Assembly (NCBI GenBank): GCA_963855995.1
Contig: CAWLCR010000076.1
Coordinates: 1 to 64,000 of the forward strand
DNA length: 64,000 nt
DNA from: Muricea muricata
Lineage: Eukaryota > Cnidaria > Anthozoa > Malacalcyonacea > Plexauridae
Direction of reading: 5' to 3'
Numbering within the stretch: the stretch's first letter is position 1; every line of letters starts with the position of its first letter. The position numbers were made by a program, and so were the translations under genes. The notes beneath the pieces were generated by a model. That model made no database searches. It was not told where the DNA came from and worked only from the letters and a program-made list of their open reading frames with translations. Shown piece by piece: positions 11,586 through 29,409 of the stretch.

Positions 11586-14500
11586 ATGTCAAATTCTTTG
11601 AAATCTGATGACGAAATTGTAGTTTTGCCTGAAAGTGATGCTTCCATGACATCAAGTGCCTCAGAAAAGTATGGATTTGAAAGCCTGGAGAAGCAACAAC
11701 CAGACGCAAAACCGCTACAATGTGCACTTATTATAAAAGGTCAAAGCGAAAAAGAAGCAAAACTAAAAGCAACTTACCGTAACACCGAGCAAAAAGATGG
11801 TAGGAAATCAATGATTTATATAAATATTGAAATTTTCAGCAATCATTTTCTTAGTCTTATTTATAGTCTACAAATCAAATGGATGCTGCATGCAAATATA
11901 ATAATCGTTCTGTATGGTACAATTGCAAGAGGGTGTGAGATAAGTATAGATCAGGCTCTTTTGTATAAGCTACGAAACTTTGTTGTTCAGTACCTCAAAA
12001 GTACATTGAATAATAAGTTTTGCAGGTGCTTTAATCAATTTAACCTAACTTAAAGTAAGAATATACTTGGTCAGGAAAGTTTTAATAGTGTGGTGAAAGT
12101 CAAAATCTAAACCTTGTTAAAGGCCCCCTGTGAGAATTATGCCAGTGAATTATATCCTATGTTAAAATAATTAAATCAAAAATTGAAATTCAATTAAAAT
12201 TACATAAGAGTTAGTATCATGAACTAAGTGGTCTAACATTACAAAAAATTACTTAGATCGAAGCTGCGTATGCCTTATATATACGCTCCCATTTTATGTC
12301 ACACCGTTACATTCGCACATGTACGTCGTTAGAAGACTCCAGATTCCGCCCAATATATTATCATTCATGCAGTCACGCGAAATGATGTTATAAATGACAT
12401 TATTTATTAAACTAGCGAGCAAAGATGAACATGCAGGTGACAACAAAAATATGACAGAAAAAACTCAGGTAAATTTTAAGATTGCAGAGTCGCTATTGAT
12501 TAAATTAGATTAAATAAATTCGAACATATCCTAATATTCAGAATGTGCATTTAGCAAAATCTCCAAGCGGGTCGAGCTTGTATATAGCTAGTATGTTTCA
12601 ACTCAATCGCCTTGGGTCAAAACGTTTTGAGTATGTCTGCATGCGCTTAAACAAGAGAATTAAGCTGTTACTATTTCACAACTGAAAGAAAAATTATGTA
12701 AAAAGATAAAACCATTTAAAACCATAGTTATCTGTCACATTTTATTGTTAGCTGTACATGCGATATAATAGAAAAAAAATTTGGTCTGTTTTCGAGTTTT
12801 AATTAATTTTAATTACCTTTTTTCAAAGGAAAGGCAAAGCGAACGTAATTCAAGTGATGAAACAAAATGTGTGCCTCAATCTCAAGCAAACAAAGGTAAA
12901 TTTAATTGATTTCTTAAATGGCTCATCAACTGACGATCTTAGTTGAAAAAGATCCAGGCTGTCGGAGTAAGATATATTGAACTTTTAAATCTTTCCTTTC
13001 AGTTACACTTAATGTAATTATGTATAATGGAGTTATCATTATATATTCCCAAGTTGTCTCAAGTCTTCAAACAAGCTGTAACAAGTCTGTTTACAAGTTA
13101 TTGTCAGACAACAAGTTGTGTTCGCACTACTTATTCAGCAATTTAGAAAAGAAGAACAGGGCCAATAGTGCAAATAGTCCACGAATAGAGCAAATAGTCG
13201 CTGAATAGTGGGAGTAGTCCGCGAATATTTACTGAATAGTGGGAATACTCACTGAGTAGTGAGAATGCTATTCCCACTATGACTATTCACTCTATTCGCT
13301 GACTAGATCCCTATACACGCCGACTGTTCGCACTATTCGCACTGTTCTCCTTCCATCAATTACCCTGTTCATTCCTAGTTTGTCGCAACAAACTAGTGTT
13401 AACATAATTATTGAGGTGCACATAATGAAAATTCCACAGTTTTTTAATTTCATAATTATAATTACAAACACAGGTGAATCAGAGGCTGTTCCAACTGATG
13501 CAAAACATTTTAATGTTGATCACGTTAGCTCTGTGAGCAGCCAATCAGATTCTGAGCGCTTGAAAAATGATAGCAGATCTACTTCAAATGTTACGAATCA
13601 GTTGCGCAGGCGATTTGAACGTCAGCGTATCCCAAATGATAGACCTTCTCCCGGAGCTGATAATATTGCGGTCAACCAACCTGCTTATAATGTAAAGATC
13701 ATTATCGGTCAGTTAGCGGCATTGATTTTCATTATACTTGTCATCATCAAACGGTGGTACTTGCCAATATTGCCTTCCCCACAAGGACCAATTATAGAAA
13801 TCAACACCAAAAGACATTTACCACTTTCTTCGAGCAGCTGGAAACTTGTTGCTAGATGTAAAGCTTACAATTCTTCTTATTCAATAAAACACTGCCAATG
13901 GAGGCAGGTTTATCCAACTCCTACTTCCCCTCAGAATACAGTTCTTCCTGGGGGAACCAAAGATTGTCTACCTGAAAAGACTTCCCATGATATTGACGCT
14001 ACCCTTGACAATCTGCAAGTCCCCAGCCATCGAGAAAACTACGTATTTGAAATATTATGCACTGATAGCACTGGAAATAGTGGTAGGGATTCAGTTAGCA
14101 TTTTGGTGAATGAATTAAGAGAGCCGACAGTAACCGTTACCACTGATACATTGGTCATTCCAGCAAGCTCTGGTATTGCAAAGTTAGAAGCTTCGTGTAA
14201 AGCAATTCAAGGGAATATTGAAGAACAAAAGTGGTTATATCTTAGTGGACCAGGTGATAAACCGATACTACCCTCTCAAGACGGCTTTGTCCAGCTTCTC
14301 ACTCCTGGTAACTACAAGTTCCAGTACCAATGTGAGGATTCTTATGGAGGCTCAGCGTTGAGGTATGTATTATGATTGATTTGTCATCATTATTATTGAT
14401 AGCATAAAAACAAGAGGTTAATCAACTTGAAACGTATGGACTTGGATCTGAAGCCAATTATATTATAAAATATTATATTATTTTAAAAATTAACATGCAA

Positions 14501-29409: not shown

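What the first reader, a model, noticed from the sequence alone, without database searches (positions are those of the whole stretch)
11586..29409. Hsp70 fused to a transmembrane PKD/Ig-like ectodomain
Seen: exons for a transmembrane helix, cysteine-rich PKD-like pairs and a complete Hsp70 ATPase domain join in matching phase and frame over 1,236 codons. The Hsp70 exon starts with the same linker strand (xITV.V/VTVTV) as the PKD cassettes, so it behaves like one more cassette. Known: Hsp70 proteins are soluble or organellar, and I know of no family with this layout. Inference: a cell-surface or lumenal chaperone or receptor with its ATPase domain outside the cytosol, or an ATP-sensing surface protein.
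Basis: partly seen in the sequence, partly recalled or inferred. Interest (0 to 1): 0.92.

Follow-up and report, generated by a model that had tools for sequence, protein, structure and literature searches.

The report
Membrane-anchored Hsp70 with adhesion domains
A coral-type genome encodes a protein in which a heat-shock-70 ATPase sits between PKD domains and a von Willebrand A domain behind a membrane anchor, a layout conserved in relatives that suggests an ATP-using chaperone or receptor outside the cytosol.

Summary
The fusion is real, conserved and longer than reported. Of 20 relatives found, 13 hold PKD and Hsp70 in one sequence, 6 hold Hsp70 and VWA, and 4 hold the whole chain. P0001 and P0002 nearly fill 5-kb contigs, so they are probably spliced transcripts; P0013 has the PKD pair and ATPase in one ORF on a 2.9-Mb contig. 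The only relative with an organism name is from an octocoral. The Hsp70s form one divergent clade, about 34% identical to HSC70 and BiP. Catalytic residues are kept; the hydrophobic interdomain linker is not. Eight cysteines absent from canonical Hsp70s are invariant where covered, which favours an oxidising compartment. Function is untested; my best reading is a type II surface protein whose Hsp70 unit binds peptides under control of ATP. The window copy has a frameshift in its VWA exon and two damaged PKD exons. Nine paper searches found no description.

The parts
11586..11799 (+). Exon N1: start codon and N-terminal tail
   Evidence: Open frame, donor gtagga, phase 1. Local similarity to the N-termini of P0001 and P0002 (each reached by 3 of 2000 shuffles); not significant against P0003 and P0004 (176 and 235 of 2000).
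12425..12468 (+). Exon N1b, small (inferred)
   Evidence: AG acceptor, GT donor, phases 1 to 0 fit; no homology test.
12829..12895 (+). Exon N1c, small (inferred)
   Evidence: AG acceptor, GT donor, phases 0 to 1 fit; no homology test.
13474..14362 (+). Exon A: rest of tail, TM helix (about residues 182-200), PKD pair 1
   Evidence: Kyte-Doolittle maximum 2.86 at residue 182; PF22352 22 bits, below cut-off; 50% identity to P0001 over 207 columns.
15396..16031 (+). Exon B: PKD pair 2
   Evidence: PF22352 E 7e-7, 29.6 bits, above cut-off 27; dN/dS against exon A 0.40 over 192 codons.
19142..19624 (+). Exon C: decayed PKD pair, 5' part lost, probably not spliced
   Evidence: 53-55% identity to exons B and D over its remaining part; no GT at the expected donor.
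21466..22088 (+). Exon D: PKD pair with a frameshift near 22045
   Evidence: Homology continues in another frame from 22045; PF22352 26.2 bits, below cut-off.
23493..24650 (+). Exon H1: last PKD strand and Hsp70 ATPase domain
   Evidence: PF00012 E 3.1e-77, profile 1-345; 7 of 7 catalytic positions checked are kept in the window.
27156..27423 (+). Exon H2: end of ATPase domain, linker, start of the substrate-binding domain
   Evidence: PF00012 E 5.1e-8, profile 362-434, tested on 27166-27423; the acceptor at 27156 was chosen by homology.
28963..29334 (+). Exon H3: beta substrate-binding domain and short C-terminal stretch in place of most of the lid
   Evidence: PF00012 E 3.7e-17, profile 435-548.
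33129..33348 (+). Exon V1: start of VWA domain with DxSxS
   Evidence: PF00092 E 6.4e-6, 26.9 bits, cut-off 23.8, profile 1-34; 53% identity to P0001.
35145..36261 (+). Exon V2: rest of VWA and C-terminal region; two-base frameshift near 35285
   Evidence: In-frame stop TAG at 35285-35287; from 35287 another frame is open for 324 codons, 58% identical to P0001 over 316 columns.

Best explanation
A single gene encodes a membrane-anchored Hsp70-family protein. Shown by sequence: N-terminal tail, one TM helix, PKD-like pair(s) with six invariant cysteines, a catalytically complete Hsp70 ATPase domain, a beta substrate-binding domain without the canonical C-terminal lid region, and a VWA domain with a MIDAS motif. 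Inferred: it is a type II protein with everything after the TM helix outside the cytosol, most likely at the cell surface. The PKD pair acts as a stalk, extracellular or lumenal ATP binds the Hsp70 unit and changes its grip on exposed peptides or damaged proteins, and the VWA domain holds a protein ligand through its metal site. The protein would thus work as a capture receptor or tethered chaperone, with the short disordered tail as the cytosolic part. Architecture: about 0.95 certain. Non-cytosolic placement: about 0.75. ATP-controlled peptide binding: about 0.45.
For: Relatives with the whole chain in one sequence (P0001-P0004). P0001 and P0002 have ORFs of 5,232 and 5,067 nt on contigs of 5,849 and 5,177 nt, while the window gene spans about 24.7 kb with nine introns. 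P0013, on a 2.9-Mb contig, has PKD pair and ATPase in one ORF. Window residues 422-1336 align end to end with P0001 512-1427 at 60% identity, across PKD, Hsp70 and VWA. Seven catalytic positions are unchanged in all sequences that cover them, 19-21 of 21. PKD cysteines are invariant in 13 of 13 (first domain) and 14 of 14 (second); two ATPase-domain cysteines are invariant in 20 of 20 and 21 of 21 and absent from 12 of 12 and 5 of 5 canonical Hsp70s aligned there. Models: two beta-sandwiches plus ATPase fold (P0008, mean pLDDT 79), and ATPase plus beta domain matching DnaK and BiP structures (best rows TMt 0.79-0.90). MIDAS DxSxS..T..D is present in P0001-P0005.
Against: Charge flanks of the TM helix do not clearly favour N-in (window 0 positive before, 2 after; P0001 6 and 3). 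The hydrophobic linker that couples ATPase and substrate domains in DnaK (VLLL) is changed in all 7 sequences that reach it, and the J-protein contact R167 is K in 21 of 21. No localisation, ATPase or binding data. The VWA part of the P0006 model is of low confidence, and P0006 departs from the MIDAS consensus. The window copy is frameshifted within VWA.
Confidence: 0.5

Rival explanations
1. A membrane-tethered chaperone of the ER or secretory pathway that never reaches the surface: the Hsp70 unit assists folding or quality control of secreted proteins, with the VWA and PKD domains as client or partner sites.
For: ATP and an oxidising milieu are both present in the ER (established knowledge). 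BiP gives the best PDB sequence scores for P0005 (267 bits against 250 for HSPA1A).
Against: No KDEL-like end in the five C-termini seen (P0001-P0004, P0006). In the tree the family does not group with BiP, and BLAST scores of the window Hsp70 to HSC70, BiP and DnaK are nearly equal (268, 265, 257 bits). Adhesion-type PKD and VWA domains are unusual for ER chaperones (recalled).
Confidence: 0.2
2. An ATP-binding sensor or structural module rather than a chaperone: the Hsp70 fold is kept for nucleotide binding, but allosteric peptide release is lost.
For: Linker VLLL changed to MPxI or MKLI, R167 to K, and the canonical lid region largely missing, while catalytic residues are kept.
Against: The beta substrate domain is conserved (window H3, PF00012 E 3.7e-17), and the P0006 model places it docked on the ATPase domain as in ATP-state DnaK, although AlphaFold may copy that from known Hsp70s.
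Confidence: 0.2
3. Reversed topology: the PKD, Hsp70 and VWA parts face the cytosol and the protein is a membrane-bound cytosolic chaperone.
For: Known Hsp70s need cytosolic-type ATP levels; TM flank charges are inconclusive.
Against: Six invariant PKD cysteines and two family-specific ATPase-domain cysteines, and PKD domains are extracellular in known animal proteins (recalled).
Confidence: 0.1
4. Two or more separate neighbouring genes, joined only by the first reader.
For: Long introns; the public model of the Paramuricea relative P0005 starts inside the ATPase domain.
Against: 13 of 20 relatives carry PKD and Hsp70 in one sequence and 6 of 20 carry Hsp70 and VWA; the other seven, including P0005, start at or inside the ATPase domain and are uninformative on PKD.
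Confidence: 0.03
5. The window copy itself is a decaying pseudogene, though the family is functional.
For: Frameshift in V2, frameshift in D, decayed C.
Against: A, B, H1-H3 and V1 are open with intact splice sites; the frame after the V2 shift is open for 324 codons at 58% identity; tandem PKD copies show dN/dS 0.18-0.40. C and D can be skipped without a frame change. The V2 shift could be an assembly error or an allele.
Confidence: 0.25

Closest known systems
Canonical Hsp70 (HSC70, BiP, DnaK)
   Same: ATPase fold, catalytic residues, beta substrate-binding domain; 33-34% identity.
   Different: Membrane anchor, PKD stalk, VWA tail, two extra invariant cysteines, changed linker, canonical lid region largely missing, one divergent clade.
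KIAA0319-like PKD proteins (PF22352)
   Same: PKD-type beta-sandwiches next to a TM helix.
   Different: Borderline Pfam scores; no Hsp70 or VWA in KIAA0319 as I recall it; anchor before rather than after the PKD domains (recalled).
Inter-alpha-trypsin inhibitor heavy chains (VIT-VWA)
   Same: Among the four PDB sequences that match the VWA part of P0001 are ITIH1 (31.1 bits) and ITIH4 (23.2); the best is a bacterial-type 'conserved protein', 8s05, at 34.6 bits.
   Different: No VIT domain was reported for the six relatives scanned; Hsp70 lies before VWA.
CoCoNuT bacterial defence systems
   Same: Operons that combine Hsp70-like NBD/SBD units with TerY-type VWA domains (PMC11090510; passages seen).
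   Different: Bacterial operons predicted to target RNA, with an Hsp70-like unit predicted there to hydrolyse ATP very poorly; no PKD or TM layout in the passages seen.

Membership tests
Hsp70 family (PF00012) | Profile match over ATPase and beta substrate domains | tested here: met
   H1, H2 and H3 match profile 1-345, 362-434 and 435-548 of 599.
Hsp70 family (PF00012) | Catalytic residues (D10, T13, K71, E175, D199, T204, D206 in Hsc70) | tested here: met
   All seven in the window; 19 of 19 (D10, T13) or 21 of 21 sequences that cover them. Choice of positions recalled.
Canonical Hsp70 chaperone | Hydrophobic interdomain linker (VLLL-D) | tested here: not met
   MPxI or MKLI in 7 of 7 sequences that reach the linker; D393 kept.
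Canonical Hsp70 chaperone | Helical lid and C-terminal EEVD or KDEL | tested here: not met
   The profile match ends at 548 of 599; about 60 residues follow before VWA; one helix there in the P0006 model, so a remnant is possible. No such C-terminus in P0001-P0004 or P0006.
Canonical Hsp70 chaperone | J-protein contact R167 (DnaK) | tested here: not met
   K in 21 of 21.
Canonical Hsp70 chaperone | ATP-driven peptide binding | not testable with these tools
   Needs protein.
VWA domain (PF00092) | Profile match and MIDAS DxSxS..T..D | tested here: met
   Window V1 26.9 bits, cut-off 23.8; five of six relatives scanned match above cut-off, the sixth, P0008, being cut short; motif in P0001-P0005, not in P0006.
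K319L-like PKD (PF22352) | Profile match above cut-off | tested here: inconclusive
   Above cut-off in window exon B and P0001 only; below in window A, C, D and in P0002, P0003, P0008; not listed for P0005, P0006.
ITIH proteins | VIT domain before VWA | tested here: not met
   None reported at E up to 0.05 in the six relatives scanned.

The most novel reading that the evidence does not exclude
An animal lineage that includes octocorals has moved an Hsp70 machine to the cell exterior: a surface receptor that uses ATP, perhaps ATP released by damaged cells, to capture and release misfolded or foreign peptides while its VWA domain binds a protein ligand.
Probability: 0.35. Interest if true: 0.93.

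Novelty: new variant of a known kind. Interest (0 to 1): 0.82.

Why it matters
Hsp70 is among the most studied protein families, and its members are described as soluble proteins of the cytosol or organelles; cell-surface Hsp70 is discussed mainly as protein that was moved or released there (PMC11026673, start of abstract seen in the listing). A conserved gene that builds an Hsp70 ATPase into a membrane ectodomain between PKD and VWA domains gives a genetically encoded test of whether an Hsp70 can work outside the cytosol, and offers a candidate damage or immune receptor in corals.

Tried and rejected
Separate genes: rejected, because relatives carry the domains in one sequence. Positive-inside rule: inconclusive. 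BiP ancestry: not supported, since the family is one clade on a long branch (1.12) and the placement among canonical Hsp70s is unresolved; midpoint root, canonical rows mostly picked from the search list; P0021 was left out as a fragment. VWA-only search with P0006 residues 640-1140 found only P0006 and P0005. NCBIfam gave DnaK-type names far below their cut-offs for P0001 and P0006. The distribution outside octocorals is unknown: one of 20 relatives has an organism name, and only the best 120 of 447 hits were listed, from 7,994 scored candidates. First column of the cysteine count: P0022 aligns there by chance and is not counted. The paralog search in the window's own genome never ran: the genome search did not complete.

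Full report
Observation. The finding holds. The parts are an N-terminal tail, a strongly hydrophobic helix (Kyte-Doolittle 2.86), two PKD-like pairs (exons A and B) and an Hsp70 ATPase exon (PF00012, E 3.1e-77). A and B end, and H1 begins, in phase 2, and H1 starts with the last strand of the PKD unit. The longest ORFs of the region (394 and 370 aa) exceed the longest seen in 200 Markov resamples (206 aa).

The Hsp70 is split over three exons and includes the beta substrate-binding domain (H2 and H3). H3 ends at a splice donor, and homology to relatives resumes at 33129-33348 and 35145-36261, which encode a VWA domain and a C-terminal region. The gene therefore runs from 11586 to 36261 in ten exons.

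Relatives. Three protein searches gave 20 relatives (P0001-P0010, P0013-P0022). The profile search scored 7,994 candidates and listed 120 of 447 hits; after the family (weakest E 6.6e-178) the next hit is an ordinary Hsp70 at 8.8e-95. Thirteen relatives hold PKD and Hsp70 in one sequence, six hold Hsp70 and VWA (P0001-P0006), and four hold the whole chain (P0001-P0004). The other seven start at or inside the ATPase domain and say nothing on PKD. P0001 and P0002 have ORFs of 5,232 and 5,067 nt on contigs of 5,849 and 5,177 nt, which suggests spliced transcripts; I could not fetch those contigs. P0013, on a 2.9-Mb contig, has the PKD pair and ATPase domain in one ORF. Window residues 422-1336 align with P0001 512-1427 at 60% identity without interruption. 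The one relative with an organism name, P0005, is from the octocoral Paramuricea clavata, where it is called a Mediator subunit 37a-like protein.

The Hsp70 unit. In a tree of 40 rows the window and 19 relatives form one side of a branch with 100/100 support and length 1.12, apart from 20 canonical Hsp70s. Within it are two groups: the window with P0001-P0005 and P0017-P0020, P0022; and P0006-P0010 with P0013-P0016. Identity of the window Hsp70 to HSC70, BiP and DnaK is 34, 34 and 33%. Seven catalytic positions are unchanged wherever covered, P143 and R151 of the DnaK switch are unchanged in 21 of 21, R167 is K in 21 of 21, and the linker VLLL is MPxI or MKLI in 7 of 7. The canonical lid region is largely missing. 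So it is a divergent Hsp70 that probably binds and may hydrolyse ATP, with altered coupling and J-protein contact (inference).

Compartment. The PKD pair has six cysteines, invariant in 13 of 13 sequences for the first domain and 14 of 14 for the second. Two more, in the ATPase domain, are invariant in 20 of 20 and 21 of 21 and absent from 12 of 12 and 5 of 5 canonical Hsp70s aligned there. Charges around the TM helix do not decide the orientation. A type II anchor is my inference from the hydrophilic N-terminal tail and the cysteines.

Structure. The P0008 model (34 rows, mean pLDDT 79, pTM 0.68) has an N-terminal helix, two beta-sandwiches and an Hsp70 ATPase fold. The P0006 model (38 rows, mean pLDDT 71, pTM 0.60) adds a beta domain; its best matches are DnaK and BiP structures at TMt 0.79-0.90. 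Its VWA part is of low confidence.

State of the window copy. Exon C is decayed, exon D changes frame near 22045 and V2 has an in-frame stop at 35285-35287, after which another frame stays open for 324 codons at 58% identity to P0001. C and D can be skipped without a frame change. The V2 shift would cut the protein inside VWA, at 1,336 residues, if it is real; an assembly error or an allele is possible. dN/dS among PKD copies is 0.18-0.40, with dS above 1 in five of six pairs. No read data were available.

Mechanism. I commit to a type II surface protein in which the Hsp70 unit binds peptides or damaged proteins under control of ATP, and the VWA domain binds a protein ligand through MIDAS. Shown: architecture, conservation, catalytic residues, MIDAS motif in P0001-P0005 and DxSxS in the window. 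Inferred: placement, ATP control, ligands. The changed linker argues against simple DnaK-like coupling, so a nucleotide sensor is the main functional rival.

Known work. Nine paper searches were answered. Five found no or no relevant co-occurrence (24, 44, 46, 74 with 0 papers; 27 with one HSP60 paper), and the listings of the others (6, 1, 10 of 282, and 3 titles) showed no such protein. I read passages of one paper only, PMC11090510 (12 of 22 places), which describes bacterial operons with Hsp70-like and VWA domains. Subscription papers and preprints were not searched, so absence from print is not shown.

Noticed in passing
4638-4712: tRNA-Ser gene (anticodon aga) on the plus strand.
   Followed up: no
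40345-41139: ORF on the minus strand with three SH3 domains (PF00018 E 2.1e-44).
   Followed up: partly
52868-57957: Reverse transcriptase, RNase H and integrase ORFs of a retroelement (Ty3-like by recall), split inside RNase H by about 2.8 kb that holds a telomere-like TTAGGG array at 54655-54751.
   Followed up: partly
59402-62299: Endonuclease and reverse transcriptase ORFs of a LINE-type element; a weak reverse transcriptase fragment also at 47790-48185.
   Followed up: no
46889-47407: Minisatellite of 30 bp, 17 copies, 94% matches.
   Followed up: no
63414-63776: Two 21-bp arrays of five copies each whose units are reverse complements of each other.
   Followed up: no
16315-17053: Two AT dinucleotide arrays in the intron after exon B.
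   Followed up: no
35145-36261: The relative P0005 from Paramuricea clavata is named Mediator subunit 37a-like in public data although it is Hsp70 plus VWA; probably a misannotation with a missing N-terminal half.
   Followed up: partly
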